Of a stretch of 40,308 nucleotides of DNA, positions 10,217 through 35,221 are shown piece by piece. Position 1 is the stretch's first letter, and each line of letters opens with the position of its first letter. The translations under genes were made by a program, and so were the position numbers. The stretch is from Thermoleophilia bacterium (lineage in GTDB: Bacteria > Actinomycetota > Thermoleophilia > Solirubrobacterales > 70-9): the NCBI GenBank assembly GCA_016649615.1, contig JAENXK010000005.1:1-40308 (forward strand), written 5' to 3'. The notes beneath the pieces are model-generated. The model searched no databases. It was not told the origin of the DNA and was given only the letters and a program-made list of their open reading frames with translations.

Positions 10217-12361
10217 ATGACACCTATCCGCCAGAAGAACGTAACGGCCGCCCAGTGGGCACCGAACGGCGGGGTCGAACCTACCGACCTGACCCGTGAC
10301 GAAAATGTCGTCTTCGGCAGCAACGTCTTCTCGGTTGCCACCCAGCGCGAGCGTCTCCCGGCAGAAGCATTCACCCGGCTCCAGCGTACGCTGGACCGTG
10401 GCGAGGCCCTCGACGTTGAACTGGCCGATGCCGTCGCGGACGCGATGAAGGAGTGGGCGCTCGAAAAGGGCGCGACCCACTACACCCACGTCTTCCAGCC
10501 GCTGACCGGACTGACCGCCGAAAAACACGACTCGTTCTTCGACCCCACTTCGGAAGGTGGCTCGATCGCCAAGTTCAAGGGGACCGAGCTGATTCAGGGC
10601 GAACCCGATGCCTCGTCCTTCCCGACCGGCGGAATCCGGGCGACCTTCGAGGCCCGCGGTTACACCGCCTGGGATCCGACCAGCCCGGCCTTCGTGCTCG
10701 ACAACCCGAATGGGTCACTGCTCTGCATTCCGACCGCGTTCGCCTCCTGGACCGGCGAGGCACTCGACGCCAAGATCCCGCTGCTGCGCTCGATGGATGC
10801 CCTCTCGAAGACCGCGGTCAGGGCGCTGCGCCTGCTCGGTGACGAGGATTCACAGCGGGTGACGACCACGGTGGGACCGGAGCAGGAGTACTTCCTGATC
10901 GACGAGCAGTACTACTTCGCCCGGCCCGACCTGGTCACGACCGGCCGGACCCTGTTCGGCGCCCAGCCGGCCAAGGGACACGAGCTCGACGACCACTATT
11001 TCGGTGCGATCCCGGAACGCGTGCTCGCCTGCATGCTGGAGACCGAACAGGAGCTGGCCAAGCTCGGTGTGCCGATCAAGACCCGCCACAACGAGGTCGC
11101 GCCGGCGCAATACGAGATCGCCCCCATGTTCGAGAACTCGAATGTCGGTTCCGATCACCAGCAGTTGCTCATGCAGGTGATGCAGAACATCGCCCGCAAG
11201 TACGGGCTGGTCTGCCTGCTTCACGAAAAGCCGTTCGCCGGAGTGAATGGCTCAGGCAAACACAACAACTGGTCGATGGGTACCGATACCGGCCACAACC
11301 TGCTCGAGCCGGGTGACACTCCGGCCGAGAATCTCGACTTCCTCTTCTTCTGTGCGGCGGTTATCCAGGCGGTGAACCGACACCAGGGCCTGCTCAGGGC
11401 GAGCGTCGCCAACATCGGGCAGGATCACCGCCTCGGAGCCAACGAGGCCCCGCCGGCGATCATCTCGATCTACCTCGGCGGCCAGCTGGAAGAGATCTTC
11501 GACACGATCGCCCGTGGATCCGGCGAGGCGGCGATCCCCGAAGCGGTGCTCGACCTCGGGACCGAGGTTCTGCCGCCGCTGGCCCTTCACGGTGGCGACC
11601 GCAACCGGACCTCGCCTTTTGCCTTCACCGGCAACAAGTTCGAGTTCCGGGCGCTCGGGTCGAGCATGTCGCTCGCATTCACCAATACGGTCCTCAATAC
11701 GATCGTCGCCGAGGCCATCGACGACCTCAGCGGCAAGCTCGAGTCGATCGGAACCGACGATCTGCCGACCGCTGTGGCGACCGTGGTCAGGGAGTCTTAC
11801 CTGGCCAACCGGCAGATCTGCTTCAGCGGCGACAACTACTCCGAGGAGTGGGAGAAGGAGGCGGCCCGGCGTGGTCTGAAGAACCTCAAGACCACCCCGG
11901 ACGCCCTGCCCGAGGTGATCACTCCGTCAACGGTCGAGGTTTTCGACGAATACAATGTGCTTTCCGAACGGGAGCTGGAGTCCCGCTACGACGTCTGGAT
12001 CGAGCAGTACGCGATCAACGCGAATATCGAGGCGGAGACCGCGGCATCAATTGCCCGCACGATGATCATCCCGGCCACGCTCCGCCACCTGGCGCTGACC
12101 GACGCAGGCGGTTCCGGTGCGCTCGAGGCCGAGAGCCGCGAGCTGCTCGAAGGCCTGATCGAGAAGACCATGGCGCTCGAATCGGCCAACCTCTACCCGG
12201 AAGGCATAGAAGACGACGGCCTCGACCTTGCGGTCTATGCGCGCGACCACCAGCTGGCCGCGATGCATGAGGTCCGCGTGGTCGCCGACCAGCTGGAGAA
12301 GATCGTCGCCGACGACCTCTGGCCGCTGCCGAAGTACTCGGAGATGCTCTTCATCAAGTAG
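10217..12361 (+). CDS. glnN: Type III glutamine synthetase (GSIII)
   Basis: ATP-dependent amidation of glutamate to glutamine; cytosolic nitrogen assimilation. At 714 residues it has the GSIII size (about 700), clearly longer than GSI or GSII (about 350-480). Recognisable segments: an N-terminal GSIII domain with 'FGSNVFSV' (33-40), the metal-binding 'GPEQEYFL' (220-227), '[11 protein letters not shown]' (290-300), the ATP-binding '[10 protein letters not shown]' (344-353) and '[11 protein letters not shown]' further on. No adenylylation-type tyrosine loop is expected in this class. The start is supported by AGGAGG upstream. No glutamine-cycle partner is adjacent, but a PII-Amt pair lies 16 kb away in the same window. 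Confidence 0.96.
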
Positions 12362-21350: not shown

Positions 21351-22229
21351 GTGCCGAAAGCGAGCTTCTTGCCCAGCCAGACCGAATCCCAGCCTGATCC
21401 CGCCGCCGTCGTCGGGGCCCACGACCTCCCCGAGGGAATGCCTCTGCCGAAGGTACCCCCGATGGCCCGCGATGGTGAACGCCGCACCGCGGCCGAGGAA
21501 GCCCGCACGATCGTCGCCGGCACCACGTCGGGATCATTGGCGACCCTGAGTGAGGATGGCACCCCCTGGGCCTCGCTGGTCACCTTTGGAACCCTCGAAG
21601 ACGGGTCCCCGGTGCTCTGCCTCTCCCACCTGGCCGAGCACGCCCGCAATCTCGAGAAAAACCAGCAGGCTTCGCTCATGGTCGCAGACCCGACCCACAC
21701 CGGCGACGCGCTGGAGGGAGGCAGAGTCACCCTGGCCGGCCGGGTGGTCCGCTCGGACGAGAGCCCGAATGAGAAATCGGCCCGCGACGCCCACCTGGAA
21801 GCAGTGCCGAGCGCTTCGATGTATGCCGACTTCAACGATTTCACCTTCTGGATCCTCGAGATCGCGAGGGTCCGCTGGGTCGGTGGCTACGGCCGCATGG
21901 ATTCGGCGTCCGGCGAGGACTACGCCGCGGCCGAACCCGACCTGGTCCAGCCCCAGGTGCCCGACGCGATCGCCCACCTCAACGCCGACCATCCCGATGC
22001 CCTGCTGCTGATGGCCCAGGCCTTCAGCGACCACGACGAATCAACCGCGGCCCACTGCACCAGCGCCGACCGCTACGGGCTGGACCTCGCCCTGGAGACC
22101 CCGCAGGGCAAGCAGGCGACCCGGATCAATTTCACCGAGAGGATCGACCAGCCCAACGGACTGCGGGCGGCCACTGTGGATCTGGCCCGCCGGGCCCGGC
22201 AGGCCGTCGCTCAGCCGCTCGGCCGGTAG
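21351..22229 (+). CDS. HugZ-like haem-degrading enzyme (PNPOx-like fold plus DUF2470)
   Basis: A 292-residue protein with a split-barrel pyridoxamine-phosphate-oxidase-like domain (about 45-190, 'TAAEEARTIVAGTTSGSLAT' through 'GRVTLAGRVVR'). A C-terminal DUF2470 domain follows at about 200-285 ('AIAHLNADHPDALLLMAQAF'). This pair of domains is the HugZ/HutZ arrangement, in which haem is bound and opened to release iron. The His/Asp in 'NADHPDA' match the conserved DUF2470 motif. The start is uncertain: the GTG at 21351 has no ribosome binding site and would suit a nearly leaderless message 31 bases from the iron-box, while ATGs at 21438 and 21462 lie closer to the usual family start. Its 3' end overlaps the convergent gene by 19 bases. 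Confidence 0.82.
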   Translation: MPKASFLPSQTESQPDPAAVVGAHDLPEGMPLPKVPPMARDGERRTAAEEARTIVAGTTSGSLATLSEDGTPWASLVTFGTLEDGSPVLCLSHLAEHARNLEKNQQASLMVADPTHTGDALEGGRVTLAGRVVRSDESPNEKSARDAHLEAVPSASMYADFNDFTFWILEIARVRWVGGYGRMDSASGEDYAAAEPDLVQPQVPDAIAHLNADHPDALLLMAQAFSDHDESTAAHCTSADRYGLDLALETPQGKQATRINFTERIDQPNGLRAATVDLARRARQAVAQPLGR

Positions 22230-23923
22230 ATCGTCATTCCGTAGAAAGTGCCGGTCCAGATCGAGCGGGCCGGCCCGATCTCGGTCGCCGCATAGAACGA
22301 GTTGTGGCAACTGCCCGGCAACTCGTCGAGGGTCGGCTGAAGGATCGGCAGAATCCCGGTCTGATCGAAGATGCCCAGCGCTTCGTCTGAGCATTTCTGC
22401 TGCTCGGACCGGGCGAAGAATCGTGACTTGCCGTTCTTCCAGTTCAGGCCTCCGACGCCCCATATGCCGGCCTGCTGCTCGATGCCGTAGGCGGTGCCGG
22501 AGCGACCGCTGATCGAGGGGATCCCGTTCGGAACCGAAATCTTGCGGTTGTCCCAGACCGAGCGGCACCGCTGTTTCTTCTGGTTCCAGTCAATCCGCTC
22601 CATGCCCTTGGGCGCCGCGTCCGGATCGCCTCCGCGTAAAGCTGCCTGGGCAGTCCTGAGCGTCTCGGTAAGGCCATCCGGGAAATCGAAGTCGATTTCG
22701 TTGTTCACCAGCAGACTGCCGTGCCCCCTGACAGCGACTGACTGCTCGGAAAGCGAGGTGGTCGCGCCGGGGTCGCCGAAACGTACCGGATACTCGCAGG
22801 CCATCCTGCGGGGCCGGTCACCTCCCATGCCTTTCCAGTCCTTCGGCGGACGATCGCGCCAGAAAAGGTCGAGGTGCATCAGATCCTGGCCGTCAGTGAT
22901 CACCACGAACTTGTCCTGACCCCGACCGGTACCCATCAGGCTCGGCGTCGAGCCGGATCCTGCCCCGAGCCGGATTTCCGAGACATCGGAACCCGCGTCG
23001 TAGCCGGATTGCCACCTTTCGGTCAGCCGGTTCTTGCCGGCGTCGTGGTCGAACCGTCTCATCCTGGTCGACGTGACGACGTAGATTCCCCCCTTTTCAT
23101 CCGCCGCGATGTTGTTGGAGACCGTCTCGAGTTCTTCTTCAGGCGCGTCGCAGTTGTCGTTGATCGCGATGGTCCTGAGGTTGTCATCGGTCATTTCCCC
23201 GGGCTTGCGTGGCACGGTCCCGACCACTCCGCGCTCGGTCGCGAAAGCGACATAGCCGTCGTAGGTCATGGTCGCGCCGACCAGGACGTCACCGGCCCCG
23301 CAGAAAGCACGCTCAGGCAGAAAGTACCTCTTGCGAAGGGCGATCGGCGAGTTGACGCGATCTTTGGTCCCGTCTTCGAAGACGTCAAAGAACCGCTGGC
23401 GCGGGACGATGAACCGCCCTCCCCGGTCGAGAATGTTGTAGGCGCCGGTGATTCCGCCCGCGATCGGCGGAGGCGGGTTGTCTTCGCGCTCTTCCGGGAC
23501 GTAGAGGTCGATCAGCCGGCCGCTGTTGACCCCGGCCTTGAAGACGACCCGGCGATCGAATGCGTCGATCAGAGAGCCCCAGGCAGCTCGTCCGCCGTCC
23601 GGGTAAGCCTCGCTGAACTCGATCTGGATCGGCGTCCCGGGCAGATCGACGTGCTGGGTAACCACCCGCCCGCTCTCGAGGCCCCGGCTGGGGGAGGAAC
23701 CCTGGGCATAACTTCCCCGGTGGGAGGCCGACCACCGCGACTGAGCCAGATGCGGATTACAGGGCGGCTCGCTGCCTCCCCGGAGCTGCTTGCATCCCGC
23801 CGCGGCTTGTCCGGCCGAGGGAACCAGAAGCAAGACCGCACCGACGGCGACCATCGCCGCTGCCAGCCCCGAACGCCGCCTGCGCGAGCGACTTGGCCCC
23901 GGGGTCTTGCCCTCCGGGATCAT
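22211..23923 (-). CDS. Secreted protein of unknown function, beta-propeller-like
   Basis: I place the start at the ATG at 23923, just before an Arg-rich segment and a signal helix ('LAAAMVAVGAVLLLVPSAG'). A GTG at 24055, touching the stop codon of the upstream gene, would add 44 polar residues. The mature part (about 540 residues) is rich in beta-strand-like stretches with Gly/Asp turns, such as 'GYVAFATERGVVGTV', 'KGGIYVVTSTRMRRFDHD' and 'QDKFVVITDGQDLMHLDLF'. These look like blades of a beta-propeller. Six or more cysteines suggest disulfides outside the cell. I do not recognise the family. It follows the acyl-CoA dehydrogenase gene on the same strand and converges on the haem locus; a link to either is not shown. 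Confidence 0.65.
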   Translation of the reverse strand: MIPEGKTPGPSRSRRRRSGLAAAMVAVGAVLLLVPSAGQAAAGCKQLRGGSEPPCNPHLAQSRWSASHRGSYAQGSSPSRGLESGRVVTQHVDLPGTPIQIEFSEAYPDGGRAAWGSLIDAFDRRVVFKAGVNSGRLIDLYVPEEREDNPPPPIAGGITGAYNILDRGGRFIVPRQRFFDVFEDGTKDRVNSPIALRKRYFLPERAFCGAGDVLVGATMTYDGYVAFATERGVVGTVPRKPGEMTDDNLRTIAINDNCDAPEEELETVSNNIAADEKGGIYVVTSTRMRRFDHDAGKNRLTERWQSGYDAGSDVSEIRLGAGSGSTPSLMGTGRGQDKFVVITDGQDLMHLDLFWRDRPPKDWKGMGGDRPRRMACEYPVRFGDPGATTSLSEQSVAVRGHGSLLVNNEIDFDFPDGLTETLRTAQAALRGGDPDAAPKGMERIDWNQKKQRCRSVWDNRKISVPNGIPSISGRSGTAYGIEQQAGIWGVGGLNWKNGKSRFFARSEQQKCSDEALGIFDQTGILPILQPTLDELPGSCHNSFYAATEIGPARSIWTGTFYGMTIYRPSG

Positions 23924-24054
23924 CTCTCGGCTCGTTCCAGCTCTGGATTCAGAATCGTCGGCACTGACTCCTGAACTGACGGACCGCCCCGGGGTTGCGG
24001 TCAACCGGGAATCCGGGCCGTCTGAGAACAGACCCGCCGCCCGGGCGAAGGCCA

Positions 24055-25833
24055 CTACGGGCGCATTTCGTAGCCGCCGGCGAGGGCGCGGGTCTTCTCC
24101 CAGACCGAGTCGAAGCGGGCTCCGTCGGCCACCGGCTTGGTCAGCGCCGACCGGGCCCAGGCCTGCTGGGCCTCGGTCGCCGAGGTCTTTCCGTGGAGCT
24201 CGGCGGCATAGGCCGAGAAATCCCGGATCAGCACGTCGAAGATCTGATCGAGCGTGTCCAGCGGCAGACCGATGTGGGCAGCCTGCTCGCAGATCAGCTG
24301 GCCGTAGGGGATCAGCGTGAACAGTTCACCGAGGGTGAGTAGGTAGTCGAGGTCCTTCTGCTGGGCCTCGTCGGGTGCTGCCTCGACCAGCAGGGTCTTG
24401 AACGACTCGGCCAGCTCGACGAAGCGGGCGACGTTGGCGACGCCGGCGAACGGCTCAAGGGCGTCGCGCCAGGGGCTGAAGCGGATCTTGCCCAGTCCAC
24501 GGGCCGGACCCTGACGGAACAGGAACTCGTCGTCGCCCGGCTCCAGCGTGCGCGGCGGCGGGTCAAGTTCGGGGTCGGCGTTGAACAGATACGAGCCCAT
24601 GAACTTCAGCACCAGGGCCATGTTCACGTGAACGGTCCCCTCGAGCTTCGGCAGGGCACGGATGTCACGGGCCGCCATCTCGAACCACATGTCACGCTCG
24701 AAACCCTTCGCCGCGATCACGTCCCAGAGCAGATCGATCACCCGTTCGCCCTCGGTCGTCACCTTCATTTTGGTCAGTGGGTTGAACAGCAGGTAGCGAC
24801 GGTCCTCCAGCGAGGCCGTGCGCATGTAGTCGATCGAGCGGTCAGCGAAGAGCTTCATCGCCGCCAGGCGGGCGAACGCGTCGGTGAAGGCCTGGCGTAC
24901 GTGCGGAAAGTCAGTCACTTTCATCCCGTAGAGGACGCGCGAGTCGGCGTGGGTGATCGCCTCCCAGAAGGCGTGTTCGCAGATCCCGATCGAGGCGAAC
25001 CCGAGGTTGAACTTTCCGATGTTGACCGTGTTCAGAGCGGCGTCGAACGCGGACGGGCCCGCGTGAAGCAGGTCGGCCGGCTCGACCGGGTACTGATTCA
25101 GCCGGAACTGCGAGACGTAGCTCTGGGAGTTGACCACGTTGCGGATCAGCTCGTAGTCGGGGTGCTTCGAGTCGGCGGCGAAGAAAGCGTAACCCTCAGG
25201 TCCTTCGATCCCCTCCACCCGGCCGAATACGGAAACCATTCCGGCCTCGTTGCCGTTGCCGATGTAGTACTTGCCACCGGAGGCGGTGTAGCCCTCCGCC
25301 CCGTCCCGCGGAGTCAGGACCATGTCGGTCGAGTAGATGTCGGCGCCGTGCTCGCGCTCGGAAAGGCCGAAGGCGAAGATGGATCCGTTGGAGAGCAGTT
25401 CGGCCGCCCGCCTGCGCGCGGCTTCGTTTTCCGACTGGAAGATCGGCCCCAGGCCGAGAATCGAGACCTGCCATGTGTACCAGTAGGCCAGACCGTAGAA
25501 GGCAGACAGTTCGTTGAACGCGCAGATCCGCTGGGTGTCCCAGCGTTTGCCCGGGTCTCCCCCTCCTTCACGGGCGGGTGTCAGGAAATTGGCGAAGATG
25601 CCCTGCTCGGCCTGCATCTCCAAATAGCCGGAATACCAGCGGTGCCCGCGATCATCATCTTTGAGGGTCTTCTTGCCGCGGGCCTCGAACCATTCGATCA
25701 TCGCCTTGAGCCGGCTCTGATCGGCAGCTTCTAGGTGGGGCGCCGAGTAGTTCGCGGGATCGAGGATCAGGCCGTCGCCCGGCGTACCGGGTGCAATCGG
25801 CTTGGCTTCGCTGGCACTGACAGAGGTCTCCAT
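24055..25833 (-). CDS. Acyl-CoA dehydrogenase family protein
   Basis: The start chosen is the ATG at 25833 (592 residues), because a longer reading would run into the ABC permease gene and adds an Arg/Pro-rich stretch unlike the family. The N-terminal helical domain is followed by the middle beta domain with 'FAFGLSEREHGAD' (about 153-165), the FAD/substrate-binding signature of acyl-CoA dehydrogenases, and 'GGKYYIGNGNEAGMVSVFG'. The C-terminal helical domain is long, as in the roughly 600-residue actinobacterial members. Likely role: FAD-dependent alpha,beta-dehydrogenation of an acyl-CoA. I could not place the catalytic Glu with certainty. Substrate length is unknown; lipid uptake by the mce genes of this window would be one source. 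Confidence 0.85.
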   Translation of the reverse strand: METSVSASEAKPIAPGTPGDGLILDPANYSAPHLEAADQSRLKAMIEWFEARGKKTLKDDDRGHRWYSGYLEMQAEQGIFANFLTPAREGGGDPGKRWDTQRICAFNELSAFYGLAYWYTWQVSILGLGPIFQSENEAARRRAAELLSNGSIFAFGLSEREHGADIYSTDMVLTPRDGAEGYTASGGKYYIGNGNEAGMVSVFGRVEGIEGPEGYAFFAADSKHPDYELIRNVVNSQSYVSQFRLNQYPVEPADLLHAGPSAFDAALNTVNIGKFNLGFASIGICEHAFWEAITHADSRVLYGMKVTDFPHVRQAFTDAFARLAAMKLFADRSIDYMRTASLEDRRYLLFNPLTKMKVTTEGERVIDLLWDVIAAKGFERDMWFEMAARDIRALPKLEGTVHVNMALVLKFMGSYLFNADPELDPPPRTLEPGDDEFLFRQGPARGLGKIRFSPWRDALEPFAGVANVARFVELAESFKTLLVEAAPDEAQQKDLDYLLTLGELFTLIPYGQLICEQAAHIGLPLDTLDQIFDVLIRDFSAYAAELHGKTSATEAQQAWARSALTKPVADGARFDSVWEKTRALAGGYEMRP

Positions 25834-28348: not shown

Positions 28349-28702
28349 ATGAAGCTCGTCATCGGCATCGTCCGGCCCGAAAAGGCCAACGATGTTCTCG
28401 AAGCGCTTTTCCGGGCCAAGATCCGTGGCGTTTCGATGAGCAAGGTCCAGGGCCACGGCGGCGAACTCGAGCGGGTGGAAACTTACCGCGGGACAACCGT
28501 GCAGATGGGCCTATCCGAGAAGGCCAGGTTCGAGATCGCGGTCTCCGACCAGTACGTCGACGCGACCGTCAGGGCGGTGAGCGAAGGTGGCCGCACCGGA
28601 GAAGTCGGTGACGGCAAGATCTTCGTCCTTCCCCTCGATTCGGTGGTTCGGGTGCGCACCGGAGAAACCGACGATTCGGCCGTGACGCCGGTCAGTTCAT
28701 GA
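28349..28702 (+). CDS. glnK: PII nitrogen-regulatory protein lacking the T-loop Tyr51
   Basis: A 117-residue PII signal protein, the usual size being 112. It has the opening 'MKLVIGIVRPEKANDVLEAL' and the C-terminal signature around 'TGEVGDGKIFVLPLDSVVRV'. In the T-loop the sequence runs E44-T-Y46-R-G48-T-T-V51. The usual RGAEY has Tyr51, the site of uridylylation or adenylylation; here it is Val51. The T-loop centre 'VQMGLSEKARFEI' is also atypical, while Arg47 and Gly48 are kept. The protein can still be expected to bind ATP/ADP and 2-oxoglutarate and to dock on the Amt channel encoded 14 bases downstream, but covalent control through Tyr51 is excluded. GGAGGGAAG precedes the ATG. Confidence 0.92.
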   Translation: MKLVIGIVRPEKANDVLEALFRAKIRGVSMSKVQGHGGELERVETYRGTTVQMGLSEKARFEIAVSDQYVDATVRAVSEGGRTGEVGDGKIFVLPLDSVVRVRTGETDDSAVTPVSS

Positions 28703-28715
28703 GCGGGCGAGGACA

Positions 28716-30008
28716 GTGATCGACACCGGAGATACCGCATGGATGCTGGCGGCGACCGCGCTGGTGATCATGATGACGCCGGCGCTCGGCCTCTTCTACG
28801 CGGGCCTGGTCCGCTCGAAGAACACCCTGAATACCTTCATGATGAGCATCGCCGCAATCGGCGTGGCGACGATTGCCTGGGCGGTGATCGGCTACTCGAT
28901 CGCCTTCGGGGGCGAAGGCGGCTTCATCGGCAGCTTCGACTATGCGTTTCTCAAGGACGTCGGATTCGAACCGCGGGAGGGGACAACGATCCCGCACCTT
29001 CTGTTCATGGTCTTCCAGGGCAGCTTCTGCATCCTCACCGTGGCACTCGTCTCGGGCGCCGTCGTCGAGCGGATCCGCTTCGGCCCCTACCTGATCTTCG
29101 TGGTCCTCTGGTCCACCCTGGTCTATCCGGTGATGGCGCACTGGGTTTTCGGCGGCGGGTTCCTGGCCGAGGCCGGGACGCTCGACTTCGCCGGTGGCGT
29201 ATCAGTGGAAATGGCTTCCGGATTTTCAGCCCTGGCAGCGGCGCTGTTGATCGGAGCCCGCAAGGACTACGGTCGCCAGGCGCTGCTGCCGCACAACTCG
29301 GTGTTCGTCCTGCTCGGCGCAGGCCTGCTCTGGTTCGGCTGGTTCGGATTCAACGGCGGCAGCGGCATCGGTGCCAACGACAGCAGCGTGCTCGCCTTCA
29401 CCAACACGCTGCTCACCCCGGCCTGCACTGTGGTGGCCTGGTTCGTTCTCGACCTGATCCGGGGCGGCAAGGTGACGGCGGTCGGAGCCGCAACTGCAAT
29501 CATCGTCGGCTGCGTCGCCATCACCCCGGCGGCCGGGTTCATCAGCCCGATGTGGGCGATGGTTCTGGGCCTGATCGCGGCCGTGCCCAGCTACCTGATC
29601 ATTGTCTGGCGACCACGGACCCGGGTCGACGAGACGCTCGACGTGCTCGCCGCCCACGGTACCGCCGGCATCGTCGGAATTCTTTTCATCGGCTTTTTTG
29701 CCCAGATCGGCTGGAACGGGGTCGCCGACGGCCTGGTCTACGGCAACCCTGCCCAGCTCTGGGACCAGACGCTGGCCGTGCTGGTCGCTCCGGCGTACGC
29801 GTTCATCGCGACCTACGTCATTCTTCGCCTGATCGGGGCGGTCGTGCCGCTGCGCGCGAGCGAACGAGAAGAAGCCGTCGGTATGGATGTTGTCCAGCAC
29901 GGTGAGGAGGCGTACGTCACTGGCGAGGGTGCGATCCTGGTCGACGTCGGACCCAGGGGCGAAGCGGAACTCCTGGCCGATCTGAACAAAGAGCCCGACC
30001 GCGTCTGA
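28716..30008 (+). CDS. amt: Ammonium transporter (Amt) with Glu at the first channel-histidine position
   Basis: A 430-residue Amt/Mep/Rh channel with about eleven membrane helices, starting at a GTG 14 bases after the PII gene. Conserved parts include 'GLFYAGLVRSKN' (25-36), 'WFGWFGFNGGS' and 'AAHGTAGIVGI'. The second pore histidine is His314. The first, His168 of E. coli AmtB in 'GGTVVHINA', is replaced here: residues 160-168 read GGVSVEMAS, so Glu165 stands at that place. Glu at this position is known from yeast Mep1/Mep3-type transporters and still allows transport. The C-terminal tail has 'HGEEAY', the segment that contacts PII, plus about 30 extra acidic residues. Confidence 0.94.
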   Translation: MIDTGDTAWMLAATALVIMMTPALGLFYAGLVRSKNTLNTFMMSIAAIGVATIAWAVIGYSIAFGGEGGFIGSFDYAFLKDVGFEPREGTTIPHLLFMVFQGSFCILTVALVSGAVVERIRFGPYLIFVVLWSTLVYPVMAHWVFGGGFLAEAGTLDFAGGVSVEMASGFSALAAALLIGARKDYGRQALLPHNSVFVLLGAGLLWFGWFGFNGGSGIGANDSSVLAFTNTLLTPACTVVAWFVLDLIRGGKVTAVGAATAIIVGCVAITPAAGFISPMWAMVLGLIAAVPSYLIIVWRPRTRVDETLDVLAAHGTAGIVGILFIGFFAQIGWNGVADGLVYGNPAQLWDQTLAVLVAPAYAFIATYVILRLIGAVVPLRASEREEAVGMDVVQHGEEAYVTGEGAILVDVGPRGEAELLADLNKEPDRV

Positions 30009-32978: not shown

Positions 32979-33995
32979 ATGACGCCACGCGAAACCCCCG
33001 AAACTCCGGCCCCCGACGGGCGCGGCGGCCCGGGCGGGGGTGCCGTTCCACCCGGTACCGCGGTCGTCGCCCTCGGTGGCAACGCTCTGCTCCCTCGCGG
33101 CGAAGCGCCTGAAGCCGCGGCCCAGCTCCGTGCGGCGCGCCTGGCCGCCGAAACGCTCGCACCCGCCGCTGCCGGTCATCGCCTCGTGGTCACGCACGGA
33201 AACGGACCCCAGGTCGGACTGCTCGCATTGATGAACGACGCGTACGGAGAGGTCGACCCCTACCCGCTCGACGTGCTTGACGCCGAAAGCGCGGGGCAGA
33301 TCGGCTACGTGATCGAACTCGAGCTGGACAACGCGATCGACGGTTGCGACACCGTCGCATTGATAACCCGGGTCGTGGTGCGGGAGGACGACCCGGCCTT
33401 TGCCGACCCCGGCAAATTCATCGGCCCGTTGTACGACGAAGCGTCCGCCGGCGAGATCGGGGTCGAGCGGGGCTGGACCATCAAGCGCGACGGCGAAGGG
33501 TATCGGCGCGTGGTCCCGTCACCCGAGCCACAGAGCATCGTTCAGCTGTCGGCGATCCGGCGGCTGTCAGAGGCGGGGTTCCTGGTCGTATGTGCCGGTG
33601 GTGGCGGCATCCCGGTGATTGAGGAAGGCGCCGGTCACCGGGGCGTCGAAGCGGTGATCGACAAGGATCTCTGCTCCGCCCGGCTGGCGATCGACCTCGA
33701 GGCGGAGCTGCTCGTCCTGGCGACTGACGTGGATGCGGTCTACCTCGACTGGGAGGGCCCCGACCGGCGCGCGATCGGCAAGACGACGCCGTCCGGGCTC
33801 CGCCGCAACCGGTTCCCGGCAGGTTCGATGGGGCCCAAGGTCGAAGCGGCCTGCCGGATGGTCGAGGCGACGGGGGGACGGGCCGCGATCGGCTCGTTGC
33901 AAGATCTCGAGGGGTTGATCGACGGATCACGTGGCACGCAGGTGTCAGACGACTCTGATCCGGCACACGCCACCGACAACGAGAAAGGCGGCTGA
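32979..33995 (+). CDS. arcC: Carbamate kinase
   Basis: Cytosolic enzyme that makes ATP from carbamoyl phosphate and ADP, the last step of the arginine deiminase pathway. At 338 residues it is a little longer than usual (about 310) because of a Pro/Gly-rich N-terminal extension of some 25 residues. The fold starts at '[15 protein letters not shown]' and shows '[13 protein letters not shown]', '[13 protein letters not shown]', '[12 protein letters not shown]' and '[10 protein letters not shown]', all typical of amino-acid-kinase-type carbamate kinases, including the catalytic lysine in 'DKD'. An ATG after the extension does not exist, so I keep the ATG at 32979. It is followed five bases later by arginine deiminase. 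Confidence 0.95.
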
Positions 33996-34000
33996 ATGCC

Positions 34001-35221
34001 ATGACACTGAATGCCGCATCCGAGGTGGGCCGACTACGCCGGGTGATCGTTCACCGGCCTGGCCTCGAGCACACCAGGCTGACTCCCGAGAACGCGGCCC
34101 GGCTTCTCTTCGAGGACGTGATCTGGGTCAAACGGGCCGAACTCGAGCATGAGGCTTTCGTCGAGGCCCTGCGGGGACGCGGAGTTGAGGTTCTTTACGC
34201 GGAAGATCTCCTGGCCGGAGTGCTTGTAATTCCGGAAGCCCGCGACTGGATCGTCGACCAGGCCCTCAGCGAGCGCCACGTCGGTGTCCACCTCGCCCGC
34301 AACCGCCACGAGTGGGCGCACAGCGCCGCTCCGAACGAGGTCGCCGACTTCCTGATCGGCGGCATGACCAAGGAAGATCTGAAAGGCGGGTCCGGACTCA
34401 ACTACGACGCCAGCATCGACGGCGAGCTGCTGGTCCCGCCGCTGACCAACTTCATGTTCCAGCGCGACCCCTCCTCCTGGATTTTTGACGGGGTCACCCT
34501 GAACCCGATGGCCAGGCGGGCCCGGCGGCCGGAAACGGTGCTGATGGAGGCGATCTACCGGCACCATCCGATCTTCACCGGCGAGCACTTCAACATCTGG
34601 TACGGCGGGGTCGAGACCGACTGGGGCCCGGCCACGGTCGAGGGTGGCGACGTGCTGCCGCTCGGCAAGGGCGTGGTCCTGGTCGGGATGAGCGAGCGAA
34701 CCACACCGCAGGCGGTCTCGCTGATCGCCCGTCGGCTGTTTACCGCGGGATCGGCGTCGCAGGTGATCGCGGTCATGCTGCCGCAGACCCGCTCCTTCAT
34801 GCACCTCGACACCGTATTTACGATGCTCGACCGCGACGCCGTGACCCTGTTTCCGGATGTCGTCGAAGAGGCCCGCGTCTGGACGCTCCGCCCCGGTGAC
34901 GATCCCGATCTGCCGGTCGCCGAGGAGTTCGAGGGCGGCCTCGTCAGAGCGATCGAGACCGCGCTCGGGATCGACTCGATCCGGGTCATCCCGACCGGAG
35001 GCGATCCTGCGGGAACCCTGCGCGAGCAGTGGGACGACGGCAACAACGTGGTCTGCGTCGAGCCCGGCGTGGTGATCGCCTACGAGCGCAACGTAAACAC
35101 CAACGCCCGCCTGCGAAAAGAAGGGATTGAAGTGATCGAAATCGAAGGCTTCGAGCTCGGGCGTGGACGAGGTGGCCCCCGCTGCATGACCTGCCCGATC
35201 GAGCGCGACCCGGCTTACTGA
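34001..35221 (+). CDS. arcA: Arginine deiminase
   Basis: Hydrolyses arginine to citrulline and ammonia; 406 residues, the family's normal length. The nucleophile Cys395 is in the C-terminal '[10 protein letters not shown]', corresponding to Cys406 of the Pseudomonas enzyme. Other family segments are '[12 protein letters not shown]', '[21 protein letters not shown]' (guanidine-binding region, residues about 197-217) and '[13 protein letters not shown]' with the catalytic His and Asp. It begins five bases after carbamate kinase, so the two form an operon. The middle enzyme, catabolic ornithine carbamoyltransferase (arcB), and an arginine/ornithine antiporter (arcD) are absent from the window and must be elsewhere or replaced by another carbamoyltransferase. 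Confidence 0.96.

What the first reader, a model, noticed from the sequence alone, without database searches (positions are those of the whole stretch)
28716..30008. Amt channel with Glu in place of the first pore histidine
Residues 160-168 read GGVSVEMAS where E. coli AmtB has GGTVVHINA, placing Glu165 at the His168 position. The second histidine (His314) is present. Such His-to-Glu channels are known from yeast Mep1/Mep3 and differ in transport behaviour. Paired with a Tyr51-less PII, this may be a specialised module.
Basis: partly seen in the sequence, partly recalled or inferred. Interest (0 to 1): 0.5.

Follow-up and report, generated by a model that had tools for sequence, protein, structure and literature searches.

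The report
Bacterial ammonium channel with glutamate pore
This is a real ammonium transporter gene in which one of the two usual pore histidines is a glutamate, a change known from yeast that here is shared by all relatives examined in a bacterial class and is also seen in other actinobacteria, which gives ready-made pairs for testing what the residue does.

Summary
Window 28716-30008 (+) encodes a full-length Amt (430 aa) with Glu165 at the E. coli AmtB His168 position and His314 at His318. It is not an error: the codon is GAA, and all 76 examined places of 77 found in the class (Thermoleophilia) carry Glu. The nearest relatives outside the class (Thermus, Gemmatimonadota, Myxococcota) have His. 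Glu also occurs in other Actinomycetota; the tree needs five His/Glu changes, gain and loss not told apart. The paper passages I saw describe this variant only in fungal Mep1/Mep3. The PII gene just upstream does lack Tyr51, but so do PIIs beside His-type relatives and this genome's second PII, and no GlnD was found; so Glu and the missing Tyr are not coupled. Most likely this is a PII-plugged ammonium transporter with Mep1-like kinetics (faster, perhaps lower affinity or electrogenic) beside a twin-His Amt. That step is inferred from AmtB H168E and Mep2 H194E, not shown. A Ser three residues after the Glu recurs with it (suggestive only). Verdict: a bacterial variant of a known kind, apparently not described before.

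The parts
28349..28702 (+). PII (GlnK-like) gene, 117 aa, Arg47 and Val51 in the T-loop; 13 bases before amt
   Evidence: PF00543 73.4 bits; best solved match Thermus PII 1ufl E 3e-47; sequence
28499..28501 (+). PII codon 51, Val in place of Tyr
28716..30008 (+). amt gene, 430 aa ammonium transporter with Glu/His pore pair
29025..29027 (+). Phe104, Phe-gate residue (AmtB F107)
   Evidence: alignment
29208..29210 (+). Glu165 codon GAA (AmtB His168)
29217..29219 (+). Ser168 (AmtB Ala171), three residues after the Glu and recurring with it
29349..29351 (+). Phe212, Phe-gate residue (AmtB F215)
   Evidence: alignment
29655..29657 (+). His314 codon CAC (AmtB His318), second pore histidine

Best explanation
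The gene encodes an ammonium transporter of the Amt fold, in a two-gene PII-amt unit. Shown: the first pore histidine is Glu, the other conduction-path residues looked at are intact except Trp148, which is Phe; the substitution is kept in every orthologue read in the class; and this genome holds a separate twin-His Amt with its own PII. Inferred: ammonium is taken up through the pore with the acidic residue replacing His168 in proton or water handling, which changes the kinetics in the Mep1 direction: faster transport, a shifted pH response, perhaps lower affinity, possibly electrogenic. It would work beside the twin-His Amt. Inferred: its PII plugs the cytoplasmic exit under ADP/2-oxoglutarate control without covalent modification.
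For: Family and fold; model pLDDT 92.4, 2b2f Z 65.7, rmsd 1.0 over 390, AmtB-GlnK complex 2ns1 Z 63.1. Glu 76 of 76, His at the second site 76 of 76, and the Phe-gate, D160, W212, S219 and T273 positions kept in 76 of 76. The second Amt in the genome is His/His (L002). 73 of the 76 class genomes with the Glu type have two or more PF00909 matches. Outside the class, 15 of 16 Glu-type genomes also match the His pattern, 10 of them with the His-type Amt read in the tree. Kinetics by analogy, passages seen: AmtB H168E decay 45.5 vs 13.4 s-1 and Km 12.9 vs 0.8 mM with no K+ current (PMC9040831); Mep2 H194E higher Vmax and shifted pH optimum; Mep1 gives currents in oocytes, Mep2 none (PMC7048316). 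GlnK Tyr51Ala still binds and leaves AmtB (PMC4274968 abstract; PMC4285133 passage).
Against: No transport data for any of these proteins; the kinetics come from point mutants in other backgrounds, and not all point one way: AmtB H168E did not restore yeast growth on 1 mM ammonium in 3 days and did better at lower ammonium (read as toxic flux; PMC9040831), Mep1 itself has a Km of only 258 uM in oocytes, and Mep2 H194E gave no current there, though the protein was unstable (PMC7048316). ScMep1 also has Glu just before its second His, whereas this protein has Ala313, as 6 of 7 His-type sisters do. 294 of 396 phylum genomes match the His pattern anyway, so 15 of 16 is only mildly high. Three class genomes (G381, G083, G123; the last two over 90% complete) show one Amt match only, so the Glu type need not be an extra copy. 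The second copies in the class were read in only some of the 73 genomes.
Confidence: 0.53

Rival explanations
1. The Glu is functionally neutral: compensating changes around it restore ordinary AmtB-like transport, and its fixation is descent, not a kinetic role.
For: Several neighbours differ with it in the class: T165V/I, V166P/A/S, N170G/A, A171S and D310E. A Mep1 with its His restored was inactive, so context matters (PMC7048316 passage). Within the class one gain explains every Glu.
Against: Five His/Glu changes are forced on the tree, 0 of 200 bootstrap trees have one, and the Glu type mostly sits beside another Amt, which suggests that the residue does something.
Confidence: 0.26
2. It is a sensor or exporter rather than an uptake transporter, for example releasing ammonia made by the arginine deiminase pathway encoded nearby.
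For: Carbamate kinase-like and arginine deiminase genes lie at 32979-35221, and a type III glutamine synthetase gene at 10217-12361.
Against: In 15 wider neighbourhoods the PII-amt pair is kept in 15, but none holds a tblastn match to these two genes within roughly 7-9 kb. No other Pfam domain is fused to the channel.
Confidence: 0.12
3. The channel conducts other cations or methylammonium as its main substrate.
For: A double twin-His variant of AmtB passes K+ (PMC9040831 passages).
Against: The single H168E variant gave no K+ current in the same paper; the second His and the S1 Asp and Ser are kept in 76 of 76.
Confidence: 0.06
4. Sequencing error or decayed gene.
For: The window comes from a 238-contig draft assembly.
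Against: The codon needs two changes; Glu in 76 of 76 orthologous places from 75 assemblies; open frame throughout.
Confidence: 0.005

Closest known systems
Fungal Mep1/Mep3 ammonium transporters
   Same: Glu at the first pore histidine, and coexistence with a twin-His paralogue in the same organism (paper passages; here)
   Different: Bacterial; ScMep1 also has Glu before the second His, here Ala; a bacterial PII gene lies directly upstream. Fungal sequences were not placed in the tree
Escherichia coli AmtB-GlnK (and its H168E crystal structure 2now)
   Same: Fold, Phe gate, S1 Asp and Ser, second His, PII-amt gene order
   Different: AmtB is His/His by nature; its GlnK has Tyr51 and E. coli has GlnD; 38% identity in the structural alignment
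Thermus, Gemmatimonadota, Myxococcota and kin Amts (L035-L041)
   Same: Nearest relatives found outside the class, 51-61% identity; V51 PII beside five of seven
   Different: His at the first site; where found, the PII lies downstream, not upstream
Actinomycete Glu-type Amts (Amycolatopsis deserti L089, Tsukamurella tyrosinosolvens WP_068739527.1, Streptomyces sp. NBC_01237)
   Same: Glu/His pore pair, Ser three residues on
   Different: L089 lies in a different part of the tree (the other two were not put in it); PIIs found beside Glu-type Amts outside the class have Tyr51 (7 of 7)

Membership tests
Amt/Mep/Rh family, Amt subfamily (PF00909, TIGR00836) | Score above curated cut-offs over the full model | tested here: met
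   378.7 vs 23.2 bits; 408.6 vs 343.3 bits
Amt/Mep/Rh family, Amt subfamily (PF00909, TIGR00836) | Amt fold | tested here: met
   model; 2b2f Z 65.7, rmsd 1.0, 390 aligned
Amt/Mep/Rh family, Amt subfamily (PF00909, TIGR00836) | Phe gate, S1 Asp and Ser, second pore His | tested here: met
   F104, F212, D157, S216, H314
Amt/Mep/Rh family, Amt subfamily (PF00909, TIGR00836) | Transports ammonium | not testable with these tools
   no experiment
Canonical twin-His Amt (AmtB type) | His at both pore positions | tested here: not met
   Glu165 at the first; so it is not filed here
Fungal Mep1/Mep3 group | Glu at the first pore His | tested here: met
Fungal Mep1/Mep3 group | Glu just before the second His (ScMep1) | tested here: not met
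   Ala313; feature from a PMC9040831 passage; works-like at most, not a member
Fungal Mep1/Mep3 group | Descent from the fungal clade | not tested
   no fungal sequences in the collections used; nearest relatives found are bacterial
GlnK-type PII partner | PII family, gene linked to amt, T-loop Arg47 | tested here: met
   (the role of Arg47 is recalled)
GlnK-type PII partner | Tyr51, the site of uridylylation or adenylylation where that occurs | tested here: not met
   Val51; no GlnD match in the genome, about 90% complete. Many PIIs are unmodified, so this does not exclude a GlnK role

The most novel reading that the evidence does not exclude
Glu/His Amts are a recurrent bacterial functional class. 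Actinobacteria have repeatedly turned one Amt copy into a Mep1-like fast carrier by the same His-to-Glu change with a helper Ser three residues on, usually keeping a twin-His copy beside it: the same division of labour that yeast reached with Mep1/3 and Mep2.
Probability: 0.4. Interest if true: 0.65.

Novelty: new variant of a known kind. Interest (0 to 1): 0.42.

Why it matters
[quoted passage not shown] PMC9040831 offers a pore-hydration model. Those studies use engineered mutants or fungal proteins. Here are natural bacterial pairs, among them near Glu and His paralogues in one genome (L207/L272 in G410; L216/L271 in G656) and a Glu clade whose nearest relatives kept His, so the effect of the residue and of its neighbours can be tested in matched bacterial proteins.

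Tried and rejected
Sequencing error: rejected (codon, 76 of 76 orthologous places read). Shifted pore histidine: rejected by two alignments.

Glu coupled to the Tyr51-less PII: rejected.

Conserved neighbourhood beyond PII-amt: looked for in 15 wider regions; only G059 shares phytoene-synthase-like and ABC transporter genes, and G214 one alcohol dehydrogenase gene.

Co-varying residues: Ser at the AmtB Ala171 position goes with Glu in 3.8 of 5 independent pairs on average, the other way in 0.2; median p 0.125, and five pairs cannot reach 0.05. It was picked after looking at many columns, and much of that call's screen was cut from view. Loss of Thr165 goes with Glu in 1.3 of 5 pairs, Ser at the Ala174 position in 2.6, Trp148Phe in 0.5. 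Pro at the Val166 position is common in the class (62 of 76) and in 5 of 16 other Glu rows; its own pair test I did not see.

Glu type outside Actinomycetota: the pattern in 50 of the 73 non-actinobacterial genomes I had listed gave one hit, in a 29-residue frame, so chance. Of the 80 loci, four best-match Amts have Glu, all labelled actinobacterial. Of 130 plasmid-collection records with a match I read 7: 2 Glu, 5 His. These are small samples, biased by similarity or choice.

Pattern searches miss Amts with unusual motifs. In 12 of the 30 Glu-pattern loci read no Amt was found; they were dropped.

Rows dropped before counts: duplicate loci, Amt rows under 340 aa, and rows with a GS motif (Amt2-like) and largely; two long-branch His rows (L022, L259); one class place (G258, partial) was never fetched. 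An earlier FastTree of 233 rows, with the trait column in and fewer actinomycete His rows, gave three changes; the careful tree of 98 rows without that column gave five.

Full report
Observation. The ORF at 28716-30008 (+) is a complete Amt: PF00909 378.7 bits, TIGR00836 408.6 bits against a cut-off of 343.3. phmmer against solved structures and a MAFFT alignment with MG1655 AmtB both place Glu165 on His168 and His314 on His318. An AlphaFold2 model from 34 sequences has mean pLDDT 92.4 and lies closest to A. fulgidus Amt-1 (2b2f, Z 65.7, rmsd 1.0, 390 aligned) and AmtB in its GlnK complex (2ns1, Z 63.1); 2now, with Glu at this site, is at Z 54.4, rmsd 1.9, 363 aligned. The codon is GAA, two base changes from either His codon.

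Is it fixed? The window lies in a draft genome of 238 contigs. In that class 76 of 399 genomes have an orthologue of at least 62% identity, 77 places in all. I read 76 of the 77: Glu at this site in 76, His at the second in 76. Within the genus, 3 of 18 genomes carry it. The other class genomes with a match under 1e-100 are 11 of family f8 at 45-51% identity; one place or more was read in each, all His.

Relatives. Outside the class the nearest sequences are His-type: Thermus arciformis, Gemmatimonadota, Myxococcota, a cyanobacteria-labelled bin and Aminicenantes (51-61% identity). In the careful tree of 98 rows, without the site's own column, the class Glu rows form one group (16 rows, 100/100) inside a 23-row group (100/100) with those His rows.

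Other Glu-type Amts. A Glu-codon pattern matched 37 of 396 genomes of the phylum. Of 30 loci read, 18 are Amts with Glu and the second His, 16 of them outside the class; in 12 no Amt was found. The other 7 matches lie in the window's clade and were read before. The His pattern matched 294 of 396. Records with names are an actinobacterial bin (L084) and Amycolatopsis deserti (L089); Tsukamurella tyrosinosolvens NCTC13231 WP_068739527.1, with a His/His copy WP_231857396.1 in the same strain; and Streptomyces sp. NBC_01237. The His/Glu label needs five changes, all five forced by well-supported branches; 0 of 200 bootstrap trees need one. The tool does not tell gain from loss; my own reading of the drawn tree is four gains and one return to His. 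The class gain is separated from the actinomycete ones by His rows. In G410 and G656 the Glu copy and a His copy are near kin, which suggests change after duplication.

Pore anatomy. The Phe107, Phe215, Trp212, Asp160, Ser219, Thr273 and His318 positions are conserved in 76 of 76; Trp148 is Phe in 48 of 76, the window among them. Ala171 is Ser in 76 of 76 class rows, 15 of 16 other Glu rows, 0 of 7 sister His rows and 13 of 57 other His rows. Over independent pairs the link is suggestive only.

PII. The gene at 28349-28702 encodes a PII with Val51, nearest among solved structures to Thermus PII (1ufl, E 3e-47). A V51 PII lies directly upstream of 74 of 75 orthologues apart from the window. But a V51 PII accompanies five of the seven His-type sisters, downstream of amt, and this genome's second Amt; and the PIIs found within 300 bases of Glu-type Amts elsewhere (7 of 18 rows: L218, L219, L221, L222, L084, L089, L206) all have Tyr51. 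GlnD was not found in this genome and in only 7 of 149 class genomes, all of one family. A review passage says glnD is ubiquitous in actinobacteria (PMC4285133), so this class looks like an exception. GlnK Tyr51Ala still associates with and leaves AmtB (PMC4274968, abstract), so V51 does not speak against plugging.

Copies. 73 of the 76 class genomes with the Glu type have two or more PF00909 matches; G381, G083 and G123 have one. This genome has a second, His/His Amt with its own V51 PII (L002). In the phylum sample, 8 of 9 class genomes with the Glu type match the His pattern (G001 does not), and 15 of 16 outside the class; of these 15, the His Amt was read in the tree for 10, 5 are pattern matches only, and G554 has none. 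As 294 of 396 genomes match the His pattern in any case, this is only mildly high.

Function. Transport by Glu variants is known from mutants and fungi. AmtB H168E: faster decay, Km 12.9 against 0.8 mM, no K+ current; in yeast it failed on 1 mM ammonium in 3 days and did better at lower levels, read by the authors as toxic flux (PMC9040831, passages). Mep2 H194E: higher Vmax, shifted pH optimum; Mep1 gives currents in oocytes (Km 258 uM) while Mep2 and the unstable H194E do not; a Mep1 with His restored is inactive (PMC7048316, passages). From this I infer a fast carrier with altered pH response, perhaps lower affinity or electrogenic, beside a twin-His one. That step is not shown for any protein here.

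What is in print. Eight searches of the paper library (listings) and passages of papers. Passages of PMC3647058, PMC9040831 and PMC7048316 describe the Glu variant, in fungi; PMC3647058 calls it the only common natural variant. Passages seen of PMC10433425, PMC10794816, PMC11001197 and PMC9277239 do not mention a natural Glu variant in bacteria. Subscription journals are mostly not held, so absence in print is not proven.

Noticed in passing
window 32979-35221 (+): Carbamate kinase-like (NF009008) and arginine deiminase (NF002381) genes lie downstream of amt; both make ammonia in the arginine deiminase pathway. Not found near amt in 15 relatives.
   Followed up: partly
window 10217-12361 (+): Glutamine synthetase type III (GSIII N-terminal domain) about 16 kb upstream of the PII-amt pair.
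   Followed up: no
genomes of the window's class: GlnD (PF08335) found in 7 of 149 genomes, all in family f8, though a review passage calls glnD ubiquitous in actinobacteria.
   Followed up: partly
L140 328-699, L150 2823-3194, L154 977-1441, L162 2867-3244: A second PII-like protein with Leu at position 51 (RYRGAELTNYLR, 35-36% identity to the window PII) lies just downstream of the Glu-type amt in four genomes.
   Followed up: no
window 22211-24055 (-): 614-aa ORF beside an acyl-CoA dehydrogenase-like gene, with no Pfam match at 0.001.
   Followed up: no
NZ_LR134451.1 (L288) and NZ_LR134461.1 (L292): Two records labelled as plasmids of Tsukamurella carry mnmA, and amt-PII-uridylyltransferase genes, so they look like pieces of chromosome.
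   Followed up: no
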